Positions 110 through 56,020 of a DNA stretch of 64,000 nucleotides are shown here, piece by piece. The notes under the pieces are model-generated. The model saw nothing but the letters and a program-made list of their open reading frames with translations, was not told where the DNA came from and did not search any database. The translations under genes were made by a program, and so were the position numbers. Positions within the stretch are counted from its first letter, which is position 1; every line of letters starts with the position of its first letter. Where the stretch lies: positions 55,284,017-55,348,016 of the forward strand of contig OX411543.1 in NCBI GenBank assembly GCA_948146395.1, in the 5' to 3' direction. The DNA comes from Fragum whitleyi (taxonomy: Eukaryota > Mollusca > Bivalvia > Cardiida > Cardiidae).

Positions 110-251
110 CTGATAGTGTATACCCGACTGTGTGTAATTCTCTGTGATTGACCCAGTTCTGGATCTGCCCAGGTTAACACTACAGTTGAGGCTGACAAGA
201 CATGGGCCTTCAGATTCACAGGTGGTACCATTGATAGGTGAGACTGCTGTC
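110..251 (-). CDS. FN3 exon c (neogenin FN3-5, first part)
   Basis: Encodes MVPPVNLKAHVLSASTVVLT, WADPELGQSQ and HSRVYTIR. In neogenin/DCC the same order is MPPVGV-A, W-D, R-YTVRW. Acceptor TTTTTTACAG, donor AG|GTAGAA, ending in phase 2. The continuation lies to the left of the window. Confidence 0.82.
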
Positions 252-3200
252 CTGTAAAAAACAAATATCAAGGGGTAAAAATCGAGTAAATATCCAGGTT
301 AACACTTTAGCCCAGGCTGACAAAGCATTGCATGCACTCAGATTTACTGGAGGTGACACCAGTATTGTTAATTGCTATACTTAATTCACAAAACTGTATC
401 AAGTTTCTTTATATTGCATAGTTTACTGCATTAACCTCTACAATTATTCCTTGATCCCATGGGGCAAGCCTAAACTATTGAATATTACAAGACATTTATC
501 AGCAATTATTACATTCAGTAACAATAAATGGTAACATTATATATCAAAGATAACTAAATAAAATCAGTTATTTCTGTAAGGTCTAATTGGCCAATTTGGT
601 CTTAGCAGCAGCTTATATAAATATCCTGCCAGTTCACAAGATAAATGTTCTAAAACTTTGGTAATAGAAAGTCCAATCAATATTTATATGTTTTAAAAAC
701 AAAATGTCAAATGAAATGGCTGAGGCAACAGAAAACAAAATCTCAAACAATCTTTACATACCCAAGTTTTTATATGATTGTGTGCATGATCAAGTGATCA
801 TATTGTGTTGGTAACCATTCTCAACTATCCAAATGAACTGTTTTATTTTGTTGCTATGTAGCCAAAAGTAAACCTCAATCCAATGCTTTCCTGGCATCTT
901 ATCATGATGAAAGATACAGATATAGATAAGATACAAAGCTATCATCTCTTTACTCCTCCTAATTGTTTCAAAAATATTTATATTTAATCCAAGAAAGTAT
1001 GCGAATGTCTCAATGACATGATTCTTCAAGTTACACCATGCATTACATCATTGATGCTATTTAACAAAGTTAATTCCAGGGTAGAGTGAAATATTTTCAT
1101 TTCAACATCATTTCTAAGAACTCAACTTCTAAATTTGGCTGGCCTAAATCAATGTGAATGTAATAAACAGGGGTCTGTTTTACTAAACATCTAATGATGA
1201 ATTTTGCGTAAATTAAAGTCACTTCTACAGTAGTAACTTATTATGGAATTCTTCCTCGAATCATATTATAGGAATTGTCTTCTAAAGACATTTCCAATGA
1301 GATATTGCAAGGCAGAATCTATCAATGAACGAAAACACCAGGTACAATTTGTGATTTTGACTTACAATTTATTTTTCATACGGTGTTAAGTAAAACAGGC
1401 CCACATGGTTATTATATGGCTAATGAGGGCTGGAGACCTACCTTGAATTCTGTCCTCAAGCTAAAGCTCTTGAGGCAATTATCAGGATTGAGGGTATATA
1501 TCACTCCCCTGCCCTCATCAGCCATGTAATAACCACTATTTACAATAGCTATAAGCTGACCCCTAATTAAAATTATTCAATCTATAAGAAAACCTGGGAC
1601 CTTTTTGGTATCTATACCTTGTAATATTCCAAGAACCACCATGACATCTCAATCAGTTTTTTAAGTAGCATAAAAAAGCTTAACTTCTATAAATCAGAAA
1701 GTGTTACTTAGTAAAAGCTTTAAAAACTGATTCTGTGAAATTACTCACACCATTTGTAATTGACTCAAAATTCATAAAGAGCTGCAGGCAATAATATGAT
1801 TACTTGTTTGAAATTCCAAGAAAGATTGCAAAAGCTTTGTTTCTAACATGAAGACCTTTGCTAGTTATTGTTGCACACTGCTTGTACTCTTCACATCTTG
1901 TTCACAGCACATCCATGCAGTACACAAAGCTTAGACAGCCAGGATAGACTGAGGTCAGTTCACACAGCCTAATCTTATCTCCCACTGCAGGCTTTGTACT
2001 AAATTTTTGTGCAAAAAAGTGGACAAGGATGGTTAGATTTGTCCCAATATTGGCAATTCGTTTGAAAGAAAATTTTAATTCAGTTGGATAATGCCGTAAA
2101 TGGGTAACATGGGCATATCTAGGACTTGGAAGGTGACAACCAAATAAACAGGATAAAGGTGATTTTTAGACTATGTCAAAAGATGAATGCCCTCCAACTA
2201 CAGCTTGAATAAGCTATAGTTTCGATGTTATGATCATTCATTGATGATATTTTTCAACAGATGATTATTTCTTTTACACACTTGTGTAAATTGTGAGATG
2301 GGAGCTACACCCTTGGGTAAGATAATCAACATTTATCATACCTGAGCCAAAGGTTGTAAAACCTTTTTGGTACTCAACTGAGAATTTTCTCAAATTTAGA
2401 ATTAAAATAAATGTATGAACATAAAAAATAATATATGGGTAAATAAGTTGTTATTCATAACACTTTATTAATACCATAAAAGCTCTTATACAATCCTGAG
2501 GTTGAATTAGAATTATCACATTTCTTTTAGAGGGAGATGGTTTTTATTAGAGGCTACAGATGTTATGATATTGAAAAATAGCTAAAAATACAAAATAGCA
2601 GATTTACTTTAATTACTGCAAAGTAGGGATCAAAACTCAATGTGATTATTTGTGAAAAAATCATTACCATTTTACATGAGCAAGCTGTACAGGCCTTTTA
2701 ATGTACTAAAAGGTACAAAACACTCAGATAATTATATAAAAAAATTAAATCGAATCAATCATGTAAGTATCAATCTAATTGTTGACACAAAAGCTTAAAA
2801 TTTGGTCTTGAAATGTAATATTCACCCTCTTTTTAAATAATCATGACATTGACCTCGAATATTCCTGCTTTTGCAGGAAGTGCAGCCTGATCTTAGCCTA
2901 CACCACGTGTCTTTTTAAGGCAGAATTGTGTATGAAACTATGAAATTAAGATAGACTGCCCTACACCTTTGGATTCTTGCGCTTTCAGTACTTTGATTTG
3001 AGCAAAAGAGGATTTTAATTCAGCATGACAAGGGTTATCTTCAGGGCTGATGTACATAGAAAGTTGAGCATACCTGTATCTTTTTTAGTAACTGCAGATA
3101 CATATCTAGTCCTTCCATTTCCTATATTGTTGAAAGCCAGTATAGACACCACATACTCTGAGGCAGGCTCTAAAATGGAATCAAACAGCCACAGTTTGGA

Positions 3201-5341
3201 TAGGATTATTGTGACTTAGTAGGGTAGCTTTATTTAGGCAAGGCAAATTAAACAAAGAAGTATAAACACCAGACAAATTTCTTTACTAGCTAAATACATA
3301 TTTTACCAATCAGGTAACTTGGCTGAAGTGAGCTCACTTGCAACAAGAGGTTAGGAATTGCCCTATATTACTCACCTGAATTTTATTGGTCCAGTGGATA
3401 ACCCCCCCCCCCCCCCCCCCCCCAAGTATTTTTCTTGCAAAGTTTCAATCTTATTTGCCTAGTTGTCAAAAGTAAAAATAGACCTTTTATTCACCCTGCC
3501 ATGCCCATATTAACGGCCAAAAATGAATGTCATGACATTTTTTTATGAAAAGGATCACCAAAGATACATTCTGGCAAAATTTCATTTGAGGGGTCAATCA
3601 AAATTTCATGAAAAAGTTTTGAGAAGGGTCATCCAAGGAACATTTCTGCCAAGTTTAGTTGAAATCTTTCCTTTGGAGACTGAGGATAAGATGTCTAAAG
3701 TTTTCAGGGTAAAAAACAGCCCCATCCTGTCATGCCCATATTTTGGGGGTCAATCATAATTTCACAAACAACTTTTGAGAAGGGTCAACCATCCAGCTAA
3801 GTTTGGTTGATATCCACCCATTGGTTACTTAGGAGAAGATGTTTAACCCTTTGCTGTTTAATCCCTGCTTTTTACGTACCTGTGATTTTATGATTGAGAA
3901 AACATTGTGAAAAAAGAAGAAATTGCTTCTGAAAAGCAATTTCTTCCTTTTCCACACTATTTTCTACCCTACTGAATGGTTATTTTTCAAATTAAACTCA
4001 CTTTAAATTTTCGTCTGCAAAACCTTTGAATTTGGGCAGGTCTAAAATTTTGTAAACCAGGAAAGGGTTAAAGAATTGTTGATGACTTCCGATGACCGAT
4101 GCACAACAACAAAAAGGTGATCAAAAATGCTTTTAAAAGCCTAATAATGCATTTGAGTGAAATATTTTTCATATCAGGCATTACTTGTTGATTATTCTAT
4201 TTATTACATTCTCTACAACCTTTTTTCGTTCCTAAAATTATGTAGTTTGTCATTTTCTATCATCCTCTGCCCTTGCGATTTTTATGTATTTATATCAAGA
4301 AAATTTTCTTTACAATTATTTCTAGTTTAATTTAGTTCTAGTTCTATTAATTTAGGAATGGCAACTTTATCAATGATGTAAACATTGGAACATTCTTTGG
4401 AAATCTGCTCAGGCTGGATTGAGTGTTTGTTGCTATCACTGCAAAGTCATTGGATATCCAGCCTTCGAAATACTCCTCAATGTCACAGAAGACAGAAACA
4501 GTTGTATCAGGATCTATAGCTATTTTTTTAGAACTATTTCAGGATACTCCCTCATTCACATTATTGTTTATGATTGTTTCTTTAAGTTTCTGTTTGCCTA
4601 GCTCATGTTGATTAACATCCTTTTGATAATCTGTAATTCAAAAGCTTCAGTGGCGGATCCAGAGGGAGTGGGGTGTCAATCAAGAACCCTTCTGTATCCT
4701 AATATTTTCTTTTTTTCTGGGATATTTAAAACAAAATTGCATCGTTATAAACAAACATAGTTTGGCTCAAACACATTGCTCAGCGGATAAAGGTTAAAAT
4801 GTAATGTGTCCAACTGATGCGATGTCTGGAAAACAGTACATATAAATCAGCCTCGCCCGATTTAAAAATAACTTTCCAAATTTTCAGTTTGAATCCTATG
4901 CAGATATCCTGAACCTGTGATAGGTATTCAATGTTTATCTCGGTAGTCTGAGAATGAGCCAAGCTGCTTTCAAAAAAAAAAGTTCCTCCAGTGAAACTGA
5001 AAAGTGTTATCATCACGATATCAAAACTTGTTACACTGTGAAATCCCAAAATTTCACTGCCAGTAATGTAATAAAACTGTATTTGATATTTCAATATAAC
5101 AGATGTTAAGCGTAAAGGTGTAACTAATGCTTCTTATAAAACTTACCAAGATTTTCAATGGTATAAGAGAATGTATTGGCATCAAGCTTGACTTTGTAGA
5201 CATTTGGAATTCCTTTTCCGTATCCAAGATTGTAGCCTCGTACAGGAATGTTGGATCTCCTGTTTGGTTCCCATTGTACAACCAGTGAATTTGTAGTGGA
5301 ACGTACTACAAGGTCATCTAGCATGTCAGGGACTCTCGTCT
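110..5341 (-). CDS. Neogenin/DCC/Frazzled-like FN3 region, 3 exons, runs off the left edge
   Basis: Three minus-strand exons join in phase to encode most of two fibronectin type III domains. The first reads ETRVPDMLDDLVVRS, SLVVQWEP and NIPVRGYNLGYGKGIP, ending YTIENL. The second reads EYVVSILAFNNIGNG. The third reads VPPVNLKAHVLSAS, VVLTWAD and SRVYTIR. These follow in order the fourth and fifth FN3 domains of neogenin/DCC (VRGY-hGYG-G-P, then AFN--G-G, then PPV---A, then WAD). In that family this part binds netrins or RGM and is followed by FN3 6, a membrane helix and a P1-P3 cytoplasmic tail, all outside this window. The Ig and first FN3 domains are not present upstream between 46 and 64 kb. 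All phases also match exon 13 of the macroglobulin-like gene, so both may be one transcript. Confidence 0.82.
1171..1402. repeat. MITE family B copy
   Basis: Inverted ends GGGTCTGTTTTACTAAAC and GTAAAACAGGCCC. Shares AATTTTGCGTAAAT, CAGAATCTA and ACACCAGGTAC blocks with the copies at 17331 and 63197. Confidence 0.75.
2095..2335. repeat. MITE family C copy
   Basis: Contains ACAGCTTGAATAAGCTATAG and GTTATGATCATTCATTGATG, shared with copies at 16256, 19480, 45765 and 61527. Confidence 0.65.
2840..3037. repeat. MITE family A copy 1
   Basis: Ends in TTCAGCATGACAAGGGTTA with an inner ATTCCTGCTTTTGCAGGAA palindrome. Adjacent to FN3 exon b. Confidence 0.75.
3074..3169 (-). CDS. FN3 exon b (neogenin FN3-4, second part)
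   Basis: A 96-bp exon encoding EPASEYVVSILAFNNIGNGR to AVTKKDTG. EYV-S--AFN--G-G is the F and G strand block that completes the preceding domain. Acceptor ATTTTAG, donor GTATGC. A MITE end lies only 37 bp from its donor. Confidence 0.85.
3404..3423. repeat. Poly-C tract
   Basis: About 20 consecutive C; length is prone to sequencing error. Confidence 0.8.
3500..3840. repeat. Degenerate tandem repeat (AAGGGTCA... AAGTTTGGTTGA type)
   Basis: Two to three diverged units with TTTTGAGAAGGGTCA and CCAAGTTTAGTTGAAATC, a mollusc-type interspersed repeat. Open frames here are not genes. Confidence 0.5.
3843..4072. repeat. MITE family G copy 1
   Basis: Ends TTAACCCTTTGCTGTTTAAT and AGGAAAGGGTTAA, with an inner AAGAAATTGCTTCTG hairpin. 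The second copy (26218-26444) is in the opposite orientation. Confidence 0.8.
4340..4660 (-). pseudogene. Unidentified decayed coding fragment
   Basis: On the minus strand a frame reads DVNQHELGKQKLKETIINNN, then one stop, then DPDTTVSVFCDIEEYFEGW and SRFPKNVPMF. It has protein-like composition and only one stop in about 95 codons. I do not recognise it. It starts next to a solo repeat end (CAGTGGCGGATCCAG on the plus strand at about 4650-4664), so it may be a remnant of a mobile element. It could also be an unused alternative exon of the FN3 gene. Low certainty. Confidence 0.25.
5147..5341 (-). CDS. FN3 exon a (neogenin FN3-4, first part)
   Basis: Acceptor TTACTTTCAG, donor GTAAGT, phase 1 on both sides. 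The opening ETRVP resembles vertebrate neogenin at the same exon edge. The frame also stays open 5' of the acceptor to an ATG at 5411 (MLLASHIIL...), so an alternative first exon that starts the FN3 part on its own is possible. Confidence 0.85.
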
Positions 5342-5559
5342 CTGAAAGTAAATTTGATGGCTGGACATGAACAGTGCATTCTGACAAGATAATATGAGAT
5401 GCAAGTAACATCAATTTTCAAATTATTCAAGCATATATTATAAAAACAATAATATGATATGCGCCCCTGAGAAGGTTAAATGAATTTCCTCCATAAGTTG
5501 CTGAGAGATAAAGCAGACAAAAAAAGCTTCTGATTGCATGACAGACAGACAGAGAGACA

Positions 5560-5755
5560 CGTTGACTCCTACACACAACCCAGAATATAGAGAATAACAT
5601 GTTAGTGTCTTAAAATATATCAATGTTGTCTGGTCTTGGTTGGGAGGATTTATCTTGATGAGCTTTGGCTGAGTCATGATTATTTCTTGCAGCCAAGACC
5701 GGAATAGAATTGATAATTTAAGATACTGACATGCTATTCTATTTATCATGCAATC
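5560..5755. repeat. Palindromic repeat family Q, copy 1
   Basis: Imperfect hairpin around GTCTGGTCTTGGTTGG and CAGCCAAGACCGG. A related copy is at 46520-46660. Confidence 0.55.
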
Positions 5756-5887
5756 ATTCTTTCAGTGCTTAATTATTATATAATCAAAGAAAATTGTTTC
5801 TGAAAATAGACTGCTTGATTTCAGGTCAATACAGGCTTCATTCAAGACTGTTAACATGATGGGGTAGCACTGCCCTATTCAACTTAC

Positions 5888-6176
5888 CTGCTGGTGCTGC
5901 AGCATTTTCATTTTCATCCTCATTCATTGACCCTGGGGACCCTGGAGGGGCTACAGGGGCCATCTTGTCATACCCTGGTGGGCCATCAGAAGCAAACATT
6001 GGACCCTGTGGGCCCAAGTCAGAAAATGACCCATCCTCATTAGAGTTATCCTTGACAATGCTTGAGGAGAATATAGGGTAAAACACTGTCCCCTCAGACT
6101 TCTGTGTGTATGGAGTACTTGTTTTGACTATCTCTGTGATGTCAAGGGTCTGTAGAATGTTGCCTTTGGAAATCAC
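5888..6176 (-). CDS. Exon 13: truncated MG5 plus Pro/Gly/acidic linker
   Basis: Begins VISKGNILQTLDITEIV, the MG5 VLSKG-I block, but after about 40 residues loses resemblance to MG5. It continues as a low-complexity linker: GPQGPMFASDGPPGYDK, APPGSPGS, NEDENENAAAPAG. Acceptor TTTCAG; donor GTAAGT at 5886-5887 with phase 1. If the donor were skipped, the frame would stay open for only about 16 more codons before a stop. This exon sits at the border between the macroglobulin and FN3 halves. Confidence 0.75.
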
Positions 6177-9100
6177 CTGAAATAGGCCAAAAATTGAACA
6201 AGAATTTGTGATTAGTGGCTCAGGCAGTTTTTCTGTATAAAGACTTTACAATCATCCCGTGAAAGCTTCAAGGAAAACTGATTATTGTGAACTTTATCTT
6301 GTAATGGAGAATTGTTAAAATACATGGACAAGAACCACTTAAAAGCTTTTGACCTAAAAACAATAGATCTACCTGGAGATATCCCTTCTGAATGACAGTA
6401 GATTGTAACGTCGAGTAGACCCCATGTAAAGTCACATTATCTCCACAGTTCAGATAACCTTTGTGCGGGGTTGACACATGTATATAGCTGGAAGTCGGGG
6501 AATACCATTGTTTGACATGTTTCTTAGTGGAGGCTGCATACAGTGTGTACTTCTTCCTATCTACTATCTCTTTGTATGTTGATTTAGCCTTCAATATAAA
6601 TGAGCTCAAATAACCTATCAATTAAATTGCTAATGAATGGCAAAACGGAAAATACAGCTTATTCAAACTGTTCTTTTCTAGGTTTTTGATGACTATTTAC
6701 ACAATGATAAACAATATTCATTTGACTCATCCATCTCTGTAAAGCCTAGAATTATTACAACTCTTATCTTGCTGAATTCAAATTCTATTTCAAACTAATT
6801 TTTCTGAAAATTTTTCACTCATTCAACTGGTCTAGCTTAATGTTTTCTAGTATATAATTAAGTACTGTAAACGGCTTTTCATTTTTTCGTCGTACAAAAC
6901 AACCTAAGTCAAAGAGAGGCAATTTCTAGAGTAATGTCAACTTTCTACATACTTAACAATAGTTGCATGTATAAGCTTTTCACACCTTTTCTCCATGAAT
7001 TCGTTACAATGTATCAACCAACTTGGTTCTGGAATCTTGAAATTTAGGGATCAGTGCAATACTTTTATAAGTGCCTAAAATTTATAGGCACTTACAATCG
7101 TATTGCGCTGACCCGTCTAAGTTCAACGTTGTCAGCAGATTTTCTTATTCCAAGTTGAATAAGTATGGTTAGCATATCTTTGATATAAATTTAATTAAAA
7201 TTGACTAAAATGTATAGATTTCACATCCATCATAATAAGGAAATTTCTACTTTAACAAATATTAATGACAAATATTGGCGGTGGATTAATTTTGGCGCAT
7301 TTTGGCTTGACCGCCAATAAAGCCAAAATAAAACCACCGCCAAAATTACCCCGTTTACAGTAAAAAGCAGAAGGTTTAGACTAAGATCGGACTGCACATC
7401 TGTGCAGGCTAATGGTTGTCTATACCATCTGCCAAGTGACCTTGTTTATAAAGGATTACTTAATAGCTTTAGAAGATTAAGTTTAGTTAAAACATATTTC
7501 ATTGCCAATTATTTAATTTTTTTATCATAATTATACATTCAATACAATTCAAAATCAGCAAAGGGGTCTAGCCACAAGTTCTATTGACTTAGATTTGCCA
7601 TTCCCACTTGAGAAGGTTTAAATCTACACAATCAAATTCTTTCTTTACATGTTCATGTAATCACTACTATAATCAGCTTTACCAACTTATGTAAATAAGG
7701 ATAAATACAGCAGTCATTCCAGAAATAACGTACATACCCATGTCCCTGTACTTTAGCGACGTATAAAATGAGTTTGTGAGAATTAAATTCATTTATTTTC
7801 TTTTAATCTATATCATATAGAACAATTTCAAAACGCTAATACTTATTTTTTAACTATAAAGATAACATAAGTATAAAAGTCTATAACAATTATTATCGAT
7901 GTGAACAATTTTCCTATGTCCCGATTACAAAATAACATATGTATATACATAGTTTTTAATATATTCATTAAAGTAATCCCTATTTTTTGTTGTATATGTA
8001 CTAAAAACGAAATATTAAAGTAAGTTATATGATAGAAACAATTATCAGGGTCATTATCGAGATTTTAACTTGACAAAACGGTTGTCCCTGATACGATCGT
8101 CAACTCCGTTACGGCAATTATACATGATGAAATATCGGTTATTTCCCTTGGCTACGATAATAGTGATGACGTAGTTCGCAAGTTTTAATCCCGCGAAAAT
8201 ATGAATCAACATGGCGGAAAGAACACCGTGAAGGGCGTCCAAGAAAAAATAGCAGGTATGTCAGTTGTTATACGCGTACACTTTAAAAACGTCAACACCG
8301 TTCAAGCTTTTAAAGTTAGTAGCCTATTTTTTTTATTTATTCGCTCAAATTTTATTGAACAGAGTAAGTGCACGTAACGTTTAAGCACATTTGTTTACAA
8401 GCATGGCCGAAGAACAGATGGCTACACGACACTAAAAGTCAAAATGTCAACTCCGTTACAGTCAACTCCGTTTCACGAATTTTCGTAACGGTGTTGACAA
8501 CTTTGTAACGGTGTTGACTGCATTTGATATTTTCATTTTAAGCTTTAAGATAAAGTACCAAGGGGAAAATAAGCATACATTTTAACTAATTTTACTTATA
8601 CATTTTTCATATCTGTAGTCGCAAAGTACCGCCTTGGAGTGAAAGATCTTCTTCTGGGTGAAAAGGAAACATCATTAACCAATCTTTTGAGAATACCTCG
8701 GCAATATCAAATACCTGGCTGGGCGACAGGAGTGTGTGACATACGCGATCAGATTTCAGATCTCAAGGACGAGATAGCCCTTCTCAAGCGACAGCTGCAA
8801 GAATGGCAAAGTCAGCAAAGGAGCGAATGGCTGAATACAGACGGAGAAAAAGAGAGAACGCAGAGGCTTATGAAAAATATAAAGCTGACGAGAGAGAAAG
8901 ATGGCAGCGGCGAAAAGAAAGAGGTCAAGTAAAGTCAATCGGCGAGATGAGCGAGCGGGGTAAGCGAAATTGCCGCCGCCGCTGGGTCAAGGCCACCCAC
9001 GTTTACCGTCAAAAGAAAAAGATGATGAAGGAAATTATTACACCCCCTTCGACACCAGAACGAGAAGAAAATGACCCGCCGCATTTTGCTCACCAACTTA

Positions 9101-12100: not shown

Positions 12101-15100
12101 ATACTTGATGTTTACTTTTTTAGGATATTCCTGCTGGTGTGAATCCCACATCAACCAGCAATGGTGACACTCAAGCAAGCGATGGTGACCCACCGATCAG
12201 TGATGTTGACATCCGGGCCAGCAATGACGTTAGCATGCGGATCTGCGATGGTGACACGCCGAATAGCAATGGTGACACGCGGACCAGCAATAGTGACACA
12301 TCAACCTGCGATGGTGACACCATGACTGGCAATAATGGCAGCAAGTCTCCCGCTTTGCAGGTTTGAATTAATACTATTTAATGATGTGATTGGCTTTGTC
12401 TTTCACGAGTTTTGTTTAACATGCATAGATGATAGAGTAAAGTTGTTAAAAAGTGAATGTAATATTTACTCTTTAAAGATTGAACTACCAGAAATGCAGC
12501 CAAAAACATTCCTCTAAATTATTGTGTCATAAGTGAATACATTGTGTAACGAAAAAGCATTTTGCAAACTACCCAGCACCTATGTCCATGTCAATCGGCA
12601 TTTAACAGCATCATGCTATATGGTCTATTCAATTCATACGTTTTACATGTATTAGAACAGGTTGACCTTTCAGATTTCCCAGTTGAAATACATGTATAAA
12701 ATGTTTGCATACATTATATCATCTGTTGCTGTTTTATGAGTTACAGGTAGAACGTTCTTTGCGACCAGTTGAGGACCTCACTGAAAGTTTGATCGGACGT
12801 TACTGTGTTGTTGAATACGATGGGTTGCCCTACCCAGGTTTGATTCTGGACGTTGATGAAGAAGAAGCTGAGGTGTCAGCCATGGCGAGGATCGGTGCTA
12901 ATAGATTCTTTTGGCCACTAGTTGAAGACAGAATGCAGTATCAATTGGATCAAATAATAACACTGTTAGACAGTGAGCCAAGCCTCGTGACTAAACGTCA
13001 CAGGAAGCTTGATGACAACATTTGGCACAACATTTGTCATCAACTTGGGCTGGATGACATGGGAAAAAAGTAAATTGGTGTACTCAAAGATGATAGTGTC
13101 AAGTTAATGAAATAAGTCTTCGGTTTGTTCTAGTTAAACGTTATGTTTAGAAAGTTTATGGATTTAAATTGTTGTTTCGAAATTATCAATATCACATATG
13201 ACGTCCCAGTGTCCCAGATGATTTAAAATGTGTTTACACAAAAGCAAATACCATGTACTTTATTTCACAATACCAGGTTCTTGTGATATGAATAGAACAC
13301 CGTATTTGTAGTTGTCTTATTTAAGATTTATAACAGTTGTTCTTAAAGCAGTATTTACAGTGTAACCAGCAGTTTCTTATCTTTTTGGAGAATTCTGTTA
13401 ACATACATGCAATACTGTTAAAGGCTTAATTGTGTCAATAAACTACTTGGTTGGGGCTGATGTGAAGCTGTTGTTTTCTTGTGCTTTCATTCCAGCAATG
13501 TACGTTAATTTGAGAATCCCTCTGGCGACCGAGCGTTCACAGGAAGTTGAACATTTTTGAATGTCAACTCCGTTACTCCTATGCTCAACTCCGTTACTCT
13601 ATTTCAACTCCGTTATGACGTGTAAAAAGAGAAAAATAACAGTAAGCATTGCTAGTAATTTCTTCAAACATGCAACCTTAATCAGGGGAATTAGTATCTT
13701 GTTTATCTAGCAAATCATTTTTTTTGTACACAGACGCAGTATCATTTCCGTGCATTCTGTAGCATTCATATTTTAAATATTTCTGATTAAGCATTGAACC
13801 TAAGGCAACTATTTGTCAGAACATGATATCAAGACCATTTTAAAACTGTTGTTGACTAGAAAGTCATGAATTAAAATATTTATTGCAAAAAAATCTCGAG
13901 ATTAAATAATAGCTTTCATTTATTTTCCATATTTCAGTCTAGTAACGGAGATGACATTTTGGTTCATTACCATGTTTGAAATGATATATGTGTCTTCAAT
14001 ACAAAAAGAACAATTGAAATCGTTATCTTAAATTGAATTAACAAACATAAGACTAATGAATTAAAATGTTTCAGAACAATATTTTTCTTTGTCACTTTTT
14101 TGATTTTTATATGACAAAATGTACGTTATTTCTGGAATGACTGACAGACATTTGAATAAAAACAATTCAAGTCCTACTTTCCATATATCATGGGGATTTT
14201 GAAATGTTACCTACATTCATGACAAAACCATCCACACTGTTTGTGAGATTCTGTATAGTAAAGTGTATCAAGCCCTCAGAGTTAGAAACTAAAGTTTTTT
14301 CTATAGCAAGTTTTTCAATTGTTACACAAACTTCTTCTCCGGGTGCTGGTCTTCCAGTTGGAAAGCTGGCAAGGATCTACATGAAAAACAGATTAATTTT
14401 ATTTCTTTTAGGTAGAGGACCCGTTATAGTTCTGCAACATTTCTGAACTTATGATCTTTCATAATATTTACAGAGGTTTCCTTTGAAATCATTAGGAAAC
14501 CTCAGTTAGCGTTGTTAAAGTTCATTTCTTCCAAAACAAGGCAGAACTAGTACAGGTCCACTACCTTATTGCAAAAATTTGAGGAATTATGAAAGGTTTA
14601 GGATTAATTTTTTTAAGGCATGTCATTTTGCATGAGATTATGCAACCCCATGATGTCATTTGTTCACTGGGGTTCTGCATTGATAACATCATATAGAGTG
14701 AACTGAATGAATGCAAGGTATCATCTTTTGATAATTTGACTCGTTCGTTGCTGAGATTTTCAAGTGATTAACTACCTTTATTTCTCTGAATACCATCAAA
14801 ACAATATTACATAAAGAGGGCCATTGCTTGCAAAAAAAAGTTTTGAAGAAAACTATTCCTATAAGAAGGCAACCAAAATCTCAAAACTTACCCGCTCATT
14901 CAAGGTGTAGTCAAACAATTTGATTACTCCTTTCAACCATCATTTTTTTTCAAATATACCAGTAACTCATAACTTTAGTGGCCTTATACCTGAGGTTATT
15001 TGGAAAGAAAACTTATTTTGTAATTTGTAATTAAAACATAATGTAAGATCATTTAATTTTGCCCATACATTTCTTTAGTTTTGCATGACCAATCAATTTG

Positions 15101-28885: not shown

Positions 28886-28972
<87 letters not shown>

Positions 28973-43900: not shown

Positions 43901-45573
43901 TAAGTTGTTCATGAATTATTATATTTCTTAAGGTAGCAATGGACACATGGCGTCATTTTTTTCCGCCCAATGAATTTTTTTCTTGGTCACATATGTTGTA
44001 GATTAACATTGTATAGTCATTATATCAAAATTTGAAGGTACCTTTCCATGCTCGTTTTCATGCTGAGTTATCTGCCCTTGAGTGGTAAAGGCCATTTTTC
44101 AGTAAAACAGTTATATTCATTTTAGATCTAGTATAAACCCTGTACTAAGTTATAGCTATAAAAACAAATACATTTTGATAGACCTTTTACATGTACACAA
44201 TGGCTATTGACCAGAAAATTTCTCTTTGATCAATTGCATTTGCACAATTTGCTTTCAAAAGTTAAAAAATCACTAATTTTTGTAATTTTACTAGGTTAAA
44301 ATGCCACAAAAACCTATTTTTTGAAGAAATCACCCAATGAATTTTTCTTATTTTCCGATATGTTTATAATACATATTTTCCCTTTATTTGGTAAAAAAAA
44401 TCAACATACCTTTCCATGCAAATAAGAAAGTTTTTCGTTATTTTTCAGTGTTCCCTCCTAATTGAATGACGCCTTTAACGCATTTTTATTGTTAAATTTA
44501 ATGATCCAGTCATTCAATTAATATCAAATGTTGAAAAGAAGCTAAATTATGAATTTTAACCATCATTATTCTTCGTTATTTCCATAAGAAGAATCTTACG
44601 AAAACCGGTCTTTTTAAACAACGCGAAAAAAAAAAAAGAGCCGTAAAATAAACGAAAACCCACTTCCGGTTTATAGAGTGGGGAGGCCGCTGTCCATTGC
44701 CACCTTAAATGCAAACATGTGGAAATTTTAGGGCAAATTTTCGTAAAGCGCGTCTTTTTTCTCGTGATTGTTTTATACATGTATATCCAACGTTATGGCT
44801 TCGTTTGATTATTGCACTCCGTGACGATATAACGTCAGAAGGGTAGAATAAAAAAGGCAGTGTACATGTATAGGTTTTTTGTTATTTTATTGGTTTAGTG
44901 TTGACTTTATCAAATAAGTCTGTGCGTGACATTTCCAACAATTTGAAATATGCGTAAGGGGCAAACATTGAGCAGCCAAGACAGCCACATACTGTAAATA
45001 TAAAGCTACCCGATGGTCTACAGATATATTGAGACCTTATCTATCTACAAAACGCAAAGTGAAGATGGATGCACAGGCTGGTCAGAGTCTTTGCCTTGCG
45101 GTTATTTGAAAATTGTCGGAAATCCAACGCACAGGCTCAAATGATAATTCACCATTAATATCTCGATAATCTACCGGAAAACATTCAAGAAATAAACGTC
45201 TTTTCATTCATGTATATTTGCCAATCACTTAGATAAAAGAAATATGCGTTTACATTTCGTGAATTAAAAATGCCCTTTAATTTAGACCTAAACTTTAGAT
45301 AAAACTATTTGGTATCGAGGCCCATTACTGTGATACTTTTTCACAACCCATCATTTTCCCACCCTATATTTTGCAGACATTCTTATCTAGGCTGCTATCA
45401 ATGAAACAAGCGAACATTTTAAGATTGAAGGAGAAAATACTATTTTTTTGTCAAAAAATAACCCAGTGGAATACACATTGAAAGAAAAAAAAAACTTACC
45501 TTCTCGAAGAAACAACTGAGAATCCCAAACATACGAACACAATTATTCCAGTACAGTGTTTAATTACGGCCAT
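5888..45573 (-). CDS. Alpha-2-macroglobulin/C3/CD109-like (thioester protein family) N-terminal half, 13 exons
   Basis: Thirteen minus-strand exons join with consistent splice phases into about 597 residues: signal peptide (1-24), MG1, MG2, MG3, MG4 and the start of MG5. Diagnostic family motifs are QTDKPMYKPG (about 129-138) followed across an intron by VKFRILTV, and VEEYVLPKFQV (about 216-226) split by another intron. Further matches are KYTFGKPVEG (start of MG3), QKYFKPFFPYHGK (entry to MG4) and VISKGNIL (MG5). In this family these domains form the ring of secreted or GPI-anchored protease traps and complement factors. The bait/anaphylatoxin region, CUB and thioester (GCGEQ) domain should follow MG6 but are not found in the window. 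Instead the chain runs in phase into neogenin-like FN3 exons (110-5341). Assignment to A2M, C3 or CD109 is not possible from MG1-5 alone. Family membership is seen; secretion and immune role are inferred. Confidence 0.85.
6373..6614 (-). CDS. Exon 12: MG4 end and MG5 start
   Basis: Encodes YLSSFILKAKSTYKEI..., SYIHVSTPHKGYLNCGDNVT and ends QKGYLQ. S-YI-V----L-CG resembles the MG5 opening of A2M. The acceptor chosen (AATTGATAG, exon from 6614) is the only nearby AG that keeps the frame open after exon 11. An AG at 6581-6590 would hit a stop. Confidence 0.82.
6863..7362. repeat. MITE with TACTGTAAACGG ends
   Basis: About 500 bp with inverted ends TACTGTAAACGG and CCGTTTACAGTA. The interior includes a palindrome (7044-7121) and a TTGGCGGTGG hairpin near 7277-7345. 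Located in intron 11, left of the transposon. Confidence 0.65.
7711..7735 (+). repeat. Left terminal inverted repeat of the transposon
   Basis: 25 bp, exact reverse complement of 14119-14143. Preceded by ACAG. Confidence 0.9.
8097..8520. promoter_or_regulatory. Left subterminal CAACTCCGTTAC motif cluster
   Basis: Copies of GTCAACTCCGTTAC or its close variant occur near 8099, 8447 and 8462. The inverted form GTAACGGTGTTGAC occurs near 8484 and 8507, and a weaker CAACACCGTT near 8294. Similar copies occur at the right end (13560-13612). Repeated subterminal motifs in many DNA transposons are transposase binding sites; that role is inferred here. Confidence 0.6.
8201..8932 (+). CDS. Upstream overlapping ORF of the transposon (2 exons, coiled coil)
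   Basis: ATG at 8201 reads 18 codons to a GTATGT donor after 8255. An acceptor CTGTAG at 8617-8618 continues in phase for a predicted 122-residue protein ending at TAA 8930-8932. The C-terminal part has a coiled-coil look (IRDQISDLKDEIALLKRQL). Its last 130 bp overlap the transposase start (ATG 8803) in another frame. It may be a small accessory protein, or an upstream frame bypassed by leaky scanning. No homologue is recognised. Confidence 0.45.
8803..10764 (+). CDS. Transposase exon 1
   Basis: 654 codons, ending HQ at CAG|GTAAAA in phase 0. Contains the basic N-terminus, zinc-binding-like cluster and all three proposed catalytic acids. Uninterrupted by stops. Confidence 0.8.
8803..13073 (+). 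CDS. Transposase, four exons, possible D-D-32-E
   Basis: Four exons (8803-10764, 11332-11454, 12124-12360, 12747-13073) join in phase 0 into about 883 residues. The N-terminal 250 residues are very basic and helical (MAEYRRRKRENAEAYEKYK), fitting DNA binding. Then comes a Cys/His cluster (CLCKIHEN, CMYRECQDC) and a catalytic-looking core with D461 in HVDFSENYN, D543 in LTDGPTTQY and E576 in FLEASHGKGAADG. This gives D-81-D-32-E spacing typical of DDE transposases. Exon 2 adds a second Cys cluster (CRVLSCFCSHPGTCDC). Exon 4 encodes a YDGLPYPG...RFFWP module. The start has a good context (AAGAATGG). The catalytic triad is inferred from spacing. Confidence 0.75.
10795..11120. repeat. (CA)n and (TACA)n microsatellite
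   Basis: CA-rich stretch grading into about 300 bp of TACA repeats with a short unique break near 10928-10975, inside transposase intron 1. Long ORFs reading CMYVCMYV here are repeat artefacts. Confidence 0.9.
11332..11454 (+). CDS. Transposase exon 2 (Cys-rich)
   Basis: 41 codons encoding DTRKPGEVTCRVL and CFCSHPGTCDCYQP; a C-x4-C-x-C-x2-H-x3-C-x-C arrangement suggests a zinc knuckle. Acceptor TTTATTTAG, donor GTAAGT. Confidence 0.72.
11515..11610. repeat. Palindromic repeat inside the transposon intron
   Basis: GAATTTATTAAACGAGTCATC and its inverted copy flank a GAGGCTGTGCCGAG centre. A TGACGTCA-bearing stretch follows (11730-11765). It looks like a MITE that inserted into transposase intron 2. 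Confidence 0.65.
12124..12360 (+). CDS. Transposase exon 3 (S-N-G-D-T repeat linker)
   Basis: 79 codons of a degenerate seven-residue repeat (SNGDTQA, SDGDPPI, CDGDTPN, SNGDTRT, CDGDTMT). Probably a flexible acidic linker. The donor GTTTGA is weak; without splicing the protein would stop one codon later (TGA 12364-12366). Confidence 0.6.
12747..13073 (+). CDS. Transposase exon 4 (C-terminal module)
   Basis: 108 codons plus TAA. Encodes GRYCVVEYDGLPYPGLIL, AMARIGANRFFWP and a terminal helix. The Y-G--YPG...WP pattern recurs at the C-terminus of several invertebrate transposase-like proteins. Acceptor GAGTTACAG. Confidence 0.68.
   Translation, partial: VERSLRPVEDLTESLIGRYCVVEYDGLPYPGLILDVDEEEAEVSAMARIGANRFFWPLVEDRMQYQLDQIITLLDSEPSLVTKRHRKLDDNIWHNICHQLGLDDMGKK
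13437..13442 (+). terminator. AATAAA polyadenylation signal of the transposase
   Basis: Canonical hexamer 364 bp after the stop codon, followed by T/G-rich sequence. Confidence 0.5.
13560..13615. promoter_or_regulatory. Right subterminal CAACTCCGTTAC motif cluster
   Basis: Three direct copies of TCAACTCCGTTA at about 20-bp spacing (near 13564, 13585, 13605). A degenerate inverted copy (AGTAACGGAGATGAC) is at about 13940. Confidence 0.6.
14119..14143 (-). repeat. Right terminal inverted repeat of the transposon
   Basis: 25 bp ending TTTCTGGAATGACTG, followed by ACAG. Confidence 0.9.
14211..14376 (-). CDS. Exon 11: MG4
   Basis: Encodes ILASFPTGRPAPGEEVCVTI and later DGFVMNV. The pattern P-G-PAPG--V-V-I follows PY-G in MG4. 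The exon lies 67 bp from the right end of the inserted transposon (14143), so the insertion just missed it. Confidence 0.85.
14411..14572. repeat. MITE family F copy
   Basis: Inverted ends GTAGAGGACCCG and CAGGTCCACTAC around GTTTCCTTTGAAATCATTAG. Confidence 0.7.
15108..15217 (-). CDS. Exon 10: MG3 to MG4 link
   Basis: Encodes ISVHETQTGTGVWEERIKLK then FISQKYFKPFFPYHGK. The segment F--Q-YFKPG-PY-G is a standard A2M-family block at the start of MG4. Ends in phase 0 at GTAAGG. Confidence 0.88.
15420..15965. repeat. Degenerate 130-150-bp tandem repeat
   Basis: Four diverged units each with CCTCTAG-GTTCACACAAGG, TTTGACCTAGTTTTTGACC and ACATTCTGACCAAGTTTC. Ends GTGCTCAGGTGAGCT. Common in bivalve introns. 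Confidence 0.65.
15984..16231. repeat. MITE family A copy 2
   Basis: Full length: TTAACCCTTGTCATGCTGAA to GCATGACAAGGGTTAA, with inner CACATATGTGCAG and TTCCTGCTTTGGCAGGA. Confidence 0.85.
16256..16600. repeat. MITE family C copy
   Basis: Long copy with two ACAGCTTGAATAAG blocks, GATGAATGCCCTCCG and the TTACGCACTTGCATAAATT end. Confidence 0.75.
16626..16746 (-). CDS. Exon 9: MG3 end
   Basis: Encodes INGCHEFQIKTDTLKITERR and a hydrophobic strand LLVLDVNVTEKNTG. Acceptor TTATTAG; donor is the weaker GTTGAG. Phases fit both neighbours. Confidence 0.8.
16763..17012. repeat. MITE family A copy 3
   Basis: Full length; starts 17 bp from the acceptor side of exon 9. Confidence 0.85.
17331..17539. 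repeat. MITE family B copy
   Basis: GGGCCTGTTTTAATGAACAT to GTGAAACGGGCC. Confidence 0.8.
17813..17930 (-). CDS. Exon 8: MG3 (KYTFGKPVEG)
   Basis: Encodes YTFGKPVEGILNASICLKN; YTYGKPV-G is the conserved second strand of MG3. Three further cysteines (WFC, RPC, and ICL in this exon) probably form local disulfides. Starts in phase 2 and ends in phase 0. Confidence 0.88.
18270..18322. repeat. (TA)n microsatellite
   Basis: TATATC-interrupted TA repeat. Confidence 0.9.
18593..18852. repeat. MITE family L copy carrying a second nested repeat
   Basis: Outer ends CCACAGGGGAATGGCCC and GGGACATTCCCCTGTGG. The interior holds another repeat (AACAAGAGCTGTCACTG... ATGCCCCCG ... CGGGGGCATAAA) with a GACGGACGG microsatellite. 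The short unfilled relative is at 28542. Confidence 0.8.
19334..19418 (-). CDS. Exon 7: MG3 start (VLPKFQVDL)
   Basis: Its first two bases complete the valine of EEYVLPKFQV, the hallmark start of MG3. Continues through TVSTDTLWFEVCSK, with the last lysine codon split. Acceptor ATTACAG, donor GTAAGT. Confidence 0.88.
19480..19690. repeat. MITE family C copy (inverted)
   Basis: TTACCCAAGTGCGTAATAGT, AACTACAGCTTATTCAAGCTG and GGGCATTCATCTTTTGTCA blocks. Confidence 0.72.
19716..19793. repeat. MITE family A copy 4, half
   Basis: Only the right half is present, fused directly to the family C copy. Confidence 0.75.
20071..20317. repeat. MITE family A copy 5
   Basis: Full length, inverted ends intact except for one change in the right end (GACAGGGGTT). 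Confidence 0.85.
20853..20966 (-). CDS. Exon 6: MG2 end
   Basis: Encodes FAGLEFKLYEKPLLGEWKIE and ends FTVEEY. LGEWKIEAVV and the terminal VEEY are conserved at the MG2 to MG3 hinge. Phase 1 in and out, donor GTATTT. Confidence 0.87.
20980..21224. repeat. MITE family A copy 6
   Basis: Full length; its left end lies 14 bp from the acceptor of exon 6. Confidence 0.85.
21583..21655 (-). CDS. Exon 5: MG2 middle
   Basis: Encodes IDRVTVQDPHGFYMKEWKEL and PVKSG, matching the family pattern h-h-QDP-G--h--W. Starts in phase 0 and ends in phase 1 at GTAAGT. Confidence 0.85.
22254..22330. repeat. MITE family A copy 7, truncated
   Basis: Left end only (TTAACCCTTGTCATGCT), running into a T-rich tract. 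Confidence 0.6.
22447..23712. repeat. 160-170-bp tandem repeat element, about 7 units
   Basis: Units share AACTTAGGAGGAGTTGCG, GACTAAGTT--AAGGGGCATAA, CCATAAAATCCTTCCTTCAT and ACCAAGTTTCA-TTAGATC. It closes with a GGACGGACGGACTGACTG tract and GTCCGCATCCGGCGGTGT. Located in intron 4 of the macroglobulin-like gene. Confidence 0.88.
24040..24162. repeat. Hairpin repeat (GTGTCCATGAATAAAGTC)
   Basis: GATGTGTCCATGAATAAAGT and its inverse enclose GGGGAGGAGTTAT / ATAGCTCCTCCTCC. A partial copy is near 49085-49130. Confidence 0.7.
24163..24411. repeat. MITE family A copy 8
   Basis: Full length, abuts the preceding hairpin repeat without a gap. Confidence 0.82.
24486..24538 (-). CDS. Exon 4: MG2 (VKFRILTV)
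   Basis: A 53-bp exon encoding VKFRILTVTQDLLPLSQS, the direct continuation of YKPGEI in MG2. The valine codon is split by the intron, which confirms the joint. Acceptor TTTTCAG, donor GTAAGT. Confidence 0.85.
24692..24850. repeat. MITE family F copy
   Basis: GTGGACCTG ... AAATCATTAGGAACCC ... CGGGTCCACTTCCTTA. Confidence 0.72.
25077..25434. repeat. MITE family D copy
   Basis: Ends CAGGGCTTGTGTTTGAC and GCACGAGCCCTG, inner CAAGGGGGTCAAAATG. Confidence 0.82.
25640..25770. repeat. Palindromic repeat family R
   Basis: TGTGTTCAGGATG and CATCCTGAACGCAGGGC arms. Related copies are at 31357 and 47700. Confidence 0.65.
25882..26070 (-). CDS. Exon 3: end of MG1 and start of MG2, QTDKPMYKPG motif
   Basis: Encodes SHECFTWTIPEFLTPGTC, then the end of MG1 and MTFIQTDKPMYKPGEI. 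The QTDKP-Y-PG signature marks the start of MG2 throughout the A2M/C3/CD109 family. Acceptor TTTCAG, donor GTAATT; phase 1 in and out. Confidence 0.9.
26218..26444. repeat. MITE family G copy 2
   Basis: Inverted relative to copy 1; ends TTAACCCTTTCCTGTTTTAC and AACAGCAAAGGGTTAA. Confidence 0.85.
26519..26671. repeat. MITE family A copy 9, internally deleted
   Basis: TTAATCCTTGCCATGCTGA to TTAGCATGGCAAGG. Changes in both ends are complementary. Confidence 0.75.
26785..28037. repeat. Giant inverted minisatellite with GGTGGTGACTTC ends
   Basis: Ends GGTGGTGACTTCTTTAATT and TTAAGGAAGTCACCACC. The interior is about 650 bp of GAAGTGTGAA-type units, switching near 27464 to about 520 bp of TTCACACTTCA-type units. 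The two arms can pair into one hairpin. Located in intron 2. Confidence 0.88.
28113..28168. repeat. 28-bp tandem duplication
   Basis: TAAGACAGAATGATTGACTC unit present twice, perfect. Confidence 0.9.
28542..28617. repeat. MITE family L copy, minimal
   Basis: TCACAGGGGAATGTCCC and GGACATTCCCCTGTGA around TTTTAAAATATATATGATAA. Confidence 0.85.
28878..29050. repeat. (GA)n/(CAGA)n microsatellite
   Basis: Pure purine-rich GA tract followed by ten or so ACAG repeats. Arg-Glu and Leu-Ser repeat ORFs are artefacts. Confidence 0.92.
29055..29250. repeat. 30-bp inverted repeat around an AT-rich loop
   Basis: CACAGGTAGCCAACACGGGT at 29055-29084 pairs with 29221-29250 (29 of 30), enclosing 136 AT-rich bases. 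GA-rich sequence lies on both outer sides. Confidence 0.85.
29538..29692 (-). CDS. Exon 2: MG1 domain start
   Basis: Acceptor TTTTCAG and donor GTAAGT bound an open exon encoding GYMLTFPEELQIGAPENFC and LALHNVSHGVTLNLNI. This is the typical first strand pair of macroglobulin domain 1 (family pattern Y-hhhP-hhhhG-E-C/hslhN). It starts with 1 nt completing a codon and ends in phase 1. Confidence 0.85.
30580..31018. repeat. Palindromic repeat family I, copy 1
   Basis: ACATCGTGAAATTG end and TCCACGATGTTACTAATT end, inner GCGATATTTGTTACCTCCCT. Other copies are at 41200 and 48460. Confidence 0.72.
31357..31493. repeat. Palindromic repeat family R
   Basis: GCCCTGCGTTCAGGAT and ATCCTGAACGCAGGGC ends are perfect inverted repeats. 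Inner TTTGCACGCAAG and GCAAAGCGGGGTATAA blocks. Confidence 0.82.
31665..31750. repeat. Pyrimidine-rich (CTTT)n microsatellite
   Basis: TTTCTTTCTTTG and TATTTATCT repeats. Confidence 0.75.
31855..32100 (+). mobile_element. tRNA-derived SINE
   Basis: The head resembles a polymerase III promoter: an A-box-like TAGCGTGATCTATTCGG and a B-box-like GGTTTGAGCCC. A tRNA-unrelated body follows. It is not an intact tRNA: the acceptor and anticodon arms do not fold. Confidence 0.5.
32361..32727. repeat. MITE with GGCGCGTAGCTAGCC end
   Basis: Left AGGCGCGTAGCTAGCC and right GCACCTACGCGC ends; GGGGGCATGCCCCTCCCCCTG near the left. A GATTCAAAATAAT block is repeated at both sides. Confidence 0.6.
32730..36150. 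other. Intron 1 stretch without recognised genes
   Basis: AT-rich sequence with no coding signal I can support. It contains the 83-bp tandem duplication (34072-34237) and short open frames without protein-like composition. Confidence 0.5.
34072..34237. repeat. 83-bp perfect tandem duplication
   Basis: Copy 1 at 34072-34154 and copy 2 at 34155-34237 are identical (GAATGATTCGACATGTG...). Confidence 0.92.
36180..37010 (+). mobile_element. LINE fragment, endonuclease domain
   Basis: The plus strand reads GHRLLEMCQLSCLSLVNGRL, then after a frameshift in a T-run SHGGMSTVDYVLTN, then NEHSDHAPIIFS. These are the late motifs of the LINE endonuclease (VNGR, S-VDYV, SDH-P). Further protein-like sequence follows (LMNNHRVLLDSIDW) with stops. 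Located in intron 1 of the macroglobulin-like gene, opposite strand. Confidence 0.72.
38070..39390. repeat. Large nested inverted repeat
   Basis: Arms at about 38076-38315 and 39085-39385 are inverted copies (ATCATACGGGA, ATAACTATGT, GACGAAAACAAGAC, GAGGCTCTGCCGAGACAATT). They enclose the complete family H palindrome. Confidence 0.75.
38490..38935. repeat. Palindromic repeat family H, copy 1
   Basis: Has TCTGACGTCATC and GTGACGTCAC sites, then a near-perfect hairpin AAACGATTATC / GATAATCGTTT around CACTCGTGACTCCGCCACTC. The full inverted relative is at 61093-61510. Confidence 0.82.
40052..40301. repeat. MITE family A copy 10
   Basis: Diverged ends (TTAACCTTTGTCACGGTGAA, TTCAGCTTGACGG), inner palindrome now CATATATATGCGGG. 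Confidence 0.72.
40350..40692. repeat. MITE family D copy
   Basis: CAGGGCTTGTGTTAGTG to GGTCAAACACGAGCCCTG. Confidence 0.82.
40733..40894. repeat. Twin adjacent stem-loops
   Basis: Stem 1: 40733-40758 pairs with 40797-40822 (TCGATGGCTCAGCGCGAAAC). Stem 2: 40821-40851 pairs with 40867-40894 (GGTTGTGCGAAAAAGTCGA). Confidence 0.8.
41200..41655. repeat. Palindromic repeat family I, copy 2
   Basis: ACATCGTGAAATTGAAAAGG to TTTCACGATGTTGTTAAC; contains a long T tract. Confidence 0.75.
41740..41910. repeat. Family H hairpin, diverged partial copy
   Basis: ATTTCATTGAGAGAATAGG and CACGAGTGGCGGAGCCACGA. Confidence 0.6.
42839..42982. repeat. Near-perfect palindrome, 65-70-bp arms
   Basis: Arms 42839-42908 and 42918-42982 pair almost perfectly (GGGGTATAAAGTGCAATTGC) with a 9-bp loop. 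Confidence 0.9.
43932..44704. mobile_element. Non-coding DNA transposon with TTAA target duplication
   Basis: Inverted ends GGTAGCAATGGACA and TGTCCATTGCCACC (13 of 14) lie between TTAA at 43928-43931 and 44705-44708. No transposase frame, so non-autonomous. The TTAA duplication fits piggyBac or Kolobok. Confidence 0.82.
44912..45142. repeat. MITE family J, copy 1
   Basis: TCTGTGCGTGACATTTCCAA and GAAATCCAACGCACAGGCTC ends. Ends about 360 bp from exon 1, in intron 1. Confidence 0.75.
45500..45573 (-). CDS. Exon 1: start codon and signal peptide
   Basis: ATG at 45573 opens a 24-codon stretch with a basic start (MAVIKHC), a hydrophobic core (GIIVFVCLGF) and a small-residue end (SVVSS), a classic secretion signal. 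It ends AG|GTAAGT in phase 2, which joins exactly to the next exon to give SRRGYMLTF. The strong donor and matching phase support this start. The next exon is about 15.8 kb away, so a small unseen exon between them cannot be excluded. Confidence 0.72.
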
Positions 45574-45764
45574 AGTTAAAACCACGCAATAACTCTTCAT
45601 CTAATGAACAGTTTACAGCCAAGTTTTCCACTTAAAAACGCCTCTTAATAACTGCTTACCCATTTACTTCATTTAACTCCTTATTTCAAGTATTTGCTCG
45701 GAAAAAGTAAGACCGAAAAGTTGATACCGAATGGGATTTTGGTGTCAATACCAAGGGCTTAAGT

Positions 45765-55795: not shown

Positions 55796-56020
55796 AGGCT
55801 TCAATTTGTAGGTAGTCATGGCCATGTTTATAATGGCCTGGTGTTTACTGCAGGTCTGTGCAGGAATATGTTGTGAACACTTCAACAGCATGATAATGTT
55901 AGAGACTTTGCTCTTAATGATGGAAATATTTCAAATTTGGGCTGAAAAGTTCTTGTATGGCATTTGTGTAAAACTGTTATGCTTTTAAATTTAGATTTTC
56001 CTTTAAACTATCTATTTCAG

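What the first reader, a model, noticed from the sequence alone, without database searches (positions are those of the whole stretch)
110..45573. In-phase fusion of macroglobulin MG1-MG5 exons to neogenin-type FN3 exons
Sixteen minus-strand exons give one continuous frame. Thirteen encode the N-terminal half of an A2M/C3/CD109-type thioester protein and three encode the fourth and fifth FN3 domains of a neogenin/DCC-like netrin receptor. The macroglobulin part stops inside MG5, with no bait, CUB or thioester sequence. The neogenin part lacks all upstream Ig and FN3 exons anywhere in the 46-64 kb to its 5' side. If transcribed as read, it would be a receptor with a protease-trap-like ectodomain on a guidance-receptor stalk, an architecture I do not know of. 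Alternatives are exon shuffling that left a dead gene, a nested gene, or an assembly join. Phase agreement at the border alone would arise by chance about one time in three.
Basis: partly seen in the sequence, partly recalled or inferred. Interest (0 to 1): 0.88.

Follow-up and report, generated by a model that had tools for sequence, protein, structure and literature searches.

The report
Neogenin domains inside a clam macroglobulin
A bivalve gene for a complement-like immune protein carries a block of three domains copied from a nerve-guidance receptor in the middle of one of its own domains, and at least one other clam carries a similar graft at the same place.

Summary
Sixteen minus-strand exons with GT-AG borders give 740 codons without a stop: MG1 to mid-MG5 of a thioester macroglobulin, then FN4 and half of FN5 of neogenin. 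In the same assembly the gene runs on through the rest of FN5, FN6, then back into MG5, MG6, bait, an RKKR site, a GCGEQ thioester domain and the receptor-binding domain: 38 exons, 1873 codons, no stop. No neogenin Ig, membrane or cytoplasmic exon was found. It is therefore a thioester macroglobulin, probably secreted, with neogenin FN4-FN6 inserted inside MG5 as a phase 1-1 exon block that can be skipped in frame. A Mercenaria protein model carries neogenin FN6 at the same place, and two mussel relatives carry an Ig domain there. Trees favour separate captures of the two FN3 inserts (AU p = 0.032; weak). No transcript was available, so inclusion of the block in mRNA is inferred. So is the function: an accessory recognition arm on a thioester protein.

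The parts
45500..45573 (-). E1: start codon and signal-peptide-like segment (an in-frame ATG also lies at 45600)
29538..29692 (-). E2: first half of MG1
   Evidence: tblastn with P0121/P0122/P0125; model
25882..26070 (-). E3: end of MG1, start of MG2 (FIQTDKPMYKPGE)
24486..24538 (-). E4: MG2
21583..21655 (-). E5: MG2
20853..20966 (-). E6: end of MG2
19334..19418 (-). E7: MG3
17813..17930 (-). E8: MG3
16626..16746 (-). E9: MG3
15108..15217 (-). E10: MG3 end to MG4 start
14211..14376 (-). E11: MG4
6373..6614 (-). E12: end of MG4, start of MG5
5888..6176 (-). E13: first half of MG5 and a Gly-Pro-rich, acidic linker; ends in phase 1
5147..5341 (-). F1: neogenin-derived FN4, first part; enters in phase 1
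3074..3169 (-). F2: neogenin-derived FN4, second part; phase 1-1
110..251 (-). F3: neogenin-derived FN5, first half; ends in phase 2. F4 (FN5 second half), F5 and F6 (FN6), then E14 onward (MG5 second half to receptor-binding domain) follow left of the window at positions -1497 to -48148
   Evidence: continuation

Best explanation
This is one gene of about 94 kb or more for a thioester macroglobulin (A2M/PZP-like, bivalve subfamily). A block of six exons derived from a neogenin gene and encoding FN4, FN5 and FN6 lies between the two exons that encode the halves of MG5. Shown: the exons, phases, domain order, homology, continuity on one contig, and a similar neogenin insert in a Mercenaria protein model. 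Inferred: the block came as genomic DNA. It is symmetric (phase 1 in, phase 1 out), so splicing it in adds 303 residues inside MG5 without changing frame, and splicing it out also keeps frame. Inferred: the FN3 rod loops out of a long, probably disordered hairpin of MG5, while MG5 itself closes from its two halves, leaving bait, thioester and receptor-binding parts intact. Most likely function, inferred: a side arm for protein recognition or anchoring on a secreted thioester protein of the haemolymph, perhaps with and without the arm by alternative splicing.
For: The left flank on the same contig (window = C1:55284017-55348016; 80 kb fetched) holds FN5b, FN6a, FN6b, then MG5b/MG6, RKKR, MG7, CUB, TED with GCGEQ, and RBD, on the minus strand in order. 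The joined model has 38 exons, 1873 codons, 0 stops; without the block it has 1570 codons, 0 stops and 55% identity to P0121 over 1575 columns. Pfam on the full model: MG2, MG3, MG4, three fn3 stretches, A2M_BRD, A2M, TED_complement, A2M_recep, all above cut-off. Mercenaria P0001: MG2-MG3-MG4-fn3 (545-633), then A2M_BRD profile 56-136 (659-738). The Glu at the start of FN4, present in 9 of 9 neogenins aligned, is rebuilt across the E13/F1 junction. Neutral decay of the block to 62% identity would leave it free of stops in 0.2% of 1500 runs, to 78% in 1.9%. In the Mercenaria model, the MG5 strands on both sides of the insert have pLDDT 89-96 by blocks, and solved TEP1 and C3 chains align across the insert.
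Against: No RNA evidence. The six nearest long relatives (P0121-P0126) list no fn3, and two of them (P0121, P0123) come from assembled contigs of 5-6 kb that may be transcripts, so the block could be rare, optional or unused. A search for short proteins spanning MG5 and FN4 found none. The donor after FN6 is gtgagg, and the frame meets a stop two codons further on if it is not used. The block is more diverged than true neogenins: it keeps 33 of 39 invariant positions of FN4-FN5a, while eight molluscan neogenins, each left out in turn, keep 39 of 39 to 39 of 44, and its branch is 0.76 against 0.014-0.52 for the molluscan neogenins. The FN3 part of the predicted Mercenaria structure has low confidence, so the fold of the insert is not shown. 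The neutral simulation assumes that the divergence arose after insertion. A bona fide neogenin gene in this genome was not found: that search did not complete (the last try), so the block is not proved to be a second copy. P0001 is a predicted protein.
Confidence: 0.78

Rival explanations
1. The FN4-FN6 block is a passenger inside a macroglobulin intron: a partial neogenin duplication that is skipped in all or nearly all mRNA.
For: Skipping is in frame. Close relatives P0121-P0124 have only a Gly-Pro-rich linker there. No spanning fragment was found. The block is more diverged than neogenins.
Against: Six open exons with GT and AG at all 12 borders after much divergence; neutral decay would rarely leave this. 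33 of 39 neogenin-invariant positions of FN4-FN5a are kept. The Mercenaria model includes an FN3 domain in the orthologue.
Confidence: 0.15
2. A receptor with a protease-trap-like ectodomain on a neogenin stalk and tail.
For: Within the window alone the frame does end in neogenin exons.
Against: After FN6 the gene returns to MG5; no match (E below 0.2) to the membrane or cytoplasmic parts of neogenin P0133 in the 80 kb to the left. Mercenaria also returns to MG5 after FN6.
Confidence: 0.02
3. An assembly join or haplotype artefact.
For: Repeats are common in this region, and one exon start beside the block is tandemly triplicated.
Against: Macroglobulin exons of one orthologue lie in order on both sides, on a 105.9 Mb contig, and another species shows a like arrangement.
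Confidence: 0.02
4. A separate small gene of neogenin origin nested in the intron with its own promoter.
For: The exons are open and in one orientation.
Against: Its entry and exit phases match the host exons, and in Mercenaria the FN3 domain is part of the host protein model. A promoter or own start exon was not looked for.
Confidence: 0.03

Closest known systems
Alpha-2-macroglobulin / PZP / A2ML1 and other thioester proteins (A2M, C3, TEP1, CD109)
   Same: Same order of MG domains, bait region domain, TED with GCGEQ, receptor-binding domain
   Different: A neogenin FN4-FN6 block plus a long Gly-Pro-rich linker sits inside MG5; beaver A2M has only a short hairpin there. An RKKR site lies in the bait part
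Neogenin / DCC netrin receptors
   Same: FN4-FN6 are 57% identical to Mercenaria neogenin over 303 columns
   Different: No Ig domains, FN1-FN3, membrane or cytoplasmic exons found in the 144 kb read
Mercenaria mercenaria 'pregnancy zone protein-like isoform X2' (P0001)
   Same: Orthologous macroglobulin with a neogenin FN3 domain inside MG5
   Different: Only FN6, and the inserted FN6 groups with Mercenaria and Mactra neogenin; the model lacks the first MG1 half and stops at residue 739, early in MG6
Macroglobulins P0125 (Potamilus) and P0126 (Sinanodonta)
   Same: Same subfamily (100/99 with the clam proteins); an extra domain in the same MG5 loop
   Different: The extra domain is Ig, not FN3
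CPAMD8 and MCR-type thioester proteins
   Same: Thioester proteins with an added foreign domain (CPAMD8: Kazal; MCR: LDL receptor domain; passages of PMC9363628 seen)
   Different: Different added domains; none of the passages seen describes FN3 or an insertion in MG5

Membership tests
Thioester macroglobulin (A2M/TEP superfamily) | MG domain scaffold (MG2, MG3, MG4 and bait region domain) | tested here: met
   Pfam on the full model above cut-off
Thioester macroglobulin (A2M/TEP superfamily) | Thioester domain with GCGEQ | tested here: met
   TED_complement 323.9 bits; LLPTGCGEQNMV encoded in E22
Thioester macroglobulin (A2M/TEP superfamily) | C-terminal receptor-binding domain | tested here: met
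   A2M_recep 65.9 bits, profile 2-86 of 95; further C-terminal pieces to -69020 by tblastn, not joined into the model
Thioester macroglobulin (A2M/TEP superfamily) | Protease trapping or opsonic activity | not testable with these tools
   needs protein assays
Neogenin/DCC netrin receptor | N-terminal Ig domains and FN1-FN3 | tested here: not met
   tblastn with two neogenins: no such exon in the window
Neogenin/DCC netrin receptor | Membrane segment and conserved cytoplasmic tail | tested here: not met
   no match of P0133 in 80 kb downstream of the window; macroglobulin exons follow the block instead
Neogenin/DCC netrin receptor | FN4-FN6 of neogenin type | tested here: met
   best PDB match for FN4-FN5a is neogenin; FN4-FN6 group with bivalve neogenins 93/95, not starred
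Neogenin/DCC netrin receptor | Netrin or RGM binding | not testable with these tools
   needs binding assays

The most novel reading that the evidence does not exclude
The MG5 loop of one bivalve thioester protein is a standing docking site for foreign recognition domains. Clams took neogenin FN3 modules into it at least twice (FN4-FN6 here, FN6 in Mercenaria), freshwater mussels took an Ig domain, and optional splicing gives haemolymph thioester proteins with different recognition arms.
Probability: 0.35. Interest if true: 0.82.

Novelty: new variant of a known kind. Interest (0 to 1): 0.68.

Why it matters
Thioester proteins are central to invertebrate immunity. Here a rod of three netrin-receptor domains sits inside a scaffold domain, shortly before the bait region, and the same loop holds another domain in other bivalves. 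It gives a clear natural case of symmetric-phase exon shuffling within a folded domain, and of possible repeated capture at one site. It also makes a direct test possible: does the added arm choose where the thioester is deposited?

Tried and rejected
Receptor reading: rejected because macroglobulin exons follow FN6. Assembly join: very unlikely, given the order on both sides and Mercenaria. My first reading of the FN3 exons as FN5-FN6 was wrong; aligned neogenins show FN4-FN5 in the window. My guess that C9:29.74-29.84 Mb held this genome's neogenin was wrong (weak Ig/FN3 matches only, which look titin-like; that name is recalled). C12:24.286-24.296 Mb gave no match either. A search for short proteins spanning MG5 and FN4 gave none of 659 candidates at E 1e-5. 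Single origin of the two FN3 inserts: AU p = 0.032 against, while an insert older than the Mactra/Mercenaria split is not rejected on FN6 alone (p = 0.12); both inserts have long branches, and gene conversion with neogenin could mimic separate origins. Literature: 9 searches listed no title on neogenin or FN3 domains inside a macroglobulin; searches listed nothing, searches listed 12 of 13 and 12 of 52 papers. In three papers (PMC8960428, PMC12939704, PMC9363628; passages only) the word fibronectin occurs 0 times in the main text.

Full report
What was checked. E1-E13 run from 45573 to 5888 and F1-F3 from 5341 to 110. All 15 introns have GT and AG ends, phases agree at all 15 junctions, and the join gives 740 codons with no stop. 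A partial join of the macroglobulin exons matches alpha-2-macroglobulin, CD109, TEP1 and C3 in the PDB; the final model has Pfam MG2 61.5, MG3 67.4 and MG4 36.0 bits. The FN3 exons match neogenin (fn3 50.4 bits).

The relative in another clam. A protein search with an early joined translation gave 652 proteins at E 1e-3, 120 of them listed. One of the 120 listed has both macroglobulin and fn3 domains in its Pfam list: P0001, 'pregnancy zone protein-like isoform X2' of Mercenaria mercenaria, of the family Veneridae. It is 49% identical to the window's macroglobulin part. Its fn3 match (residues 545-633) is followed by a match to the later half of the A2M_BRD profile (659-738). So the macroglobulin resumes after the FN3 domain, and the FN3 domain sits inside MG5. 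A second search, for longer proteins, gave 184 hits at E 1e-30, 120 listed; none of the 120 has both kinds of domain in its Pfam list. The six nearest are P0121-P0126. Four have a Gly-Pro-rich linker in the loop and no added Pfam domain listed (P0121, P0122, P0123, P0124) and two have an Ig domain (P0125, P0126). That Potamilus and Sinanodonta are freshwater mussels is recalled. P0001 is a predicted model (that 'isoform X2' marks an NCBI prediction is recalled) and lacks the start and most of the later half.

The flank settles the architecture. The window's own assembly was reached once: the window is C1:55284017-55348016 of a 1.22 Gb genome. Eighty kilobases to the left were fetched. tblastn finds, in order and on the minus strand, the second half of FN5 (-1497 to -1672), FN6 in two exons (-3740 to -3847 and -7501 to -7692), the rest of MG5 with MG6 (-9180 to -9599), an RKKR site, MG7, CUB, the thioester domain with GCGEQ (-26795 to -26971) and the receptor-binding domain (to -48148). 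C-terminal pieces reach -69020. The first downstream model had one stop from a badly chosen last border and missed one short exon; with these two places re-read, the final model has 38 exons and 1873 codons without a stop. Without F1-F6 it has 1570 codons without a stop and is 55% identical to P0121 over 1575 columns. Downstream borders were chosen by a simple scoring script and by eye, and some (for instance the donor of E16, gtttgt) are approximate. Pfam on the full model gives MG2, MG3, MG4, three fn3 stretches, A2M_BRD, A2M, TED_complement and A2M_recep. Matches of neogenin P0133 in the flank at E below 0.2 are confined to FN5 and FN6.

How it arose. The block enters in phase 1 and leaves in phase 1. 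It keeps introns inside each FN3 domain, so it came as genomic DNA, not as a reverse-transcribed copy (inference; intron positions of a neogenin gene were not compared). The first Glu of FN4, shared by 9 of 9 neogenins aligned, is rebuilt from one base of E13 and two of F1. The block groups with neogenins of Mercenaria, Mactra and Potamilus and with the Mercenaria insert (93/95, not starred) on a long branch of 0.76. The Mercenaria insert groups with Mercenaria and Mactra neogenin (100/97, starred), nearest Mercenaria's own (86/83). Holding the two inserts together costs 7.75 log units, AU p = 0.032. On FN6 alone an insert older than the Mactra/Mercenaria split is not rejected (p = 0.12). In the macroglobulin tree the window species branches outside Mactra, Dreissena, Mercenaria and P0121 (89/89), inside a starred group of five (97/95). 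A single old insertion would then need several losses or skips, so separate captures are favoured, but weakly.

Is it used? Six exons are open and all 12 borders have GT or AG. Of 39 positions invariant in nine neogenins, 33 are kept in FN4-FN5a; in the Mercenaria insert 33 of 36 are kept in FN6. As a control, each neogenin was left out in turn: the eight molluscan ones keep 39 of 39 to 39 of 44, and 36 of 36 to 36 of 38, the frog 39 of 50 and 36 of 46. So the inserts are more diverged than molluscan neogenins but keep most of the pattern. In a neutral simulation of the block, 0.2% of 1500 runs had no stop at 62% identity, 0.5% at 70%, 1.9% at 78% and 5.7% at 85%; avoiding indels is rarer still at the rates assumed (an earlier run on F1-F3 alone gave 4.2% at 62.5%). 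This assumes that the divergence came after insertion. Against use: relatives without fn3, in-frame skipping, a modest donor after FN6, and no spanning fragment in a search of short proteins. No RNA could be examined.

Verdict. The nine paper searches, and the passages read, named in Tried and rejected, show no report of it.

Noticed in passing
left of the window, about -8640 to -9362 (locus L009): A 241 bp unit holding the acceptor and first 50 or so codons of the MG5/MG6 exon is present three times in tandem, 94-97% identical; only the third copy is a complete exon.
   Followed up: partly
8740-10779, + strand, inside the intron between E11 and E12: An open frame of 680 codons on the opposite strand, no Pfam match at E 0.01; possibly a mobile-element gene.
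   Followed up: partly
55946-57799, + strand: An open frame of 618 codons, no Pfam match at E 0.01.
   Followed up: partly
50609-50854, - strand: Fragment of a reverse transcriptase (RVT_1, 31.9 bits), upstream of the gene.
   Followed up: no
59495-59974: A 37 bp tandem repeat, 13 copies, 94% matches.
   Followed up: no
34072-34236: An 83 bp unit present twice in tandem with 100% matches.
   Followed up: no
P0125 residues 597-671 and P0126 residues 598-676: An Ig domain in the same MG5 loop of two related macroglobulins from Potamilus and Sinanodonta, preceded by an RKKR motif.
   Followed up: partly
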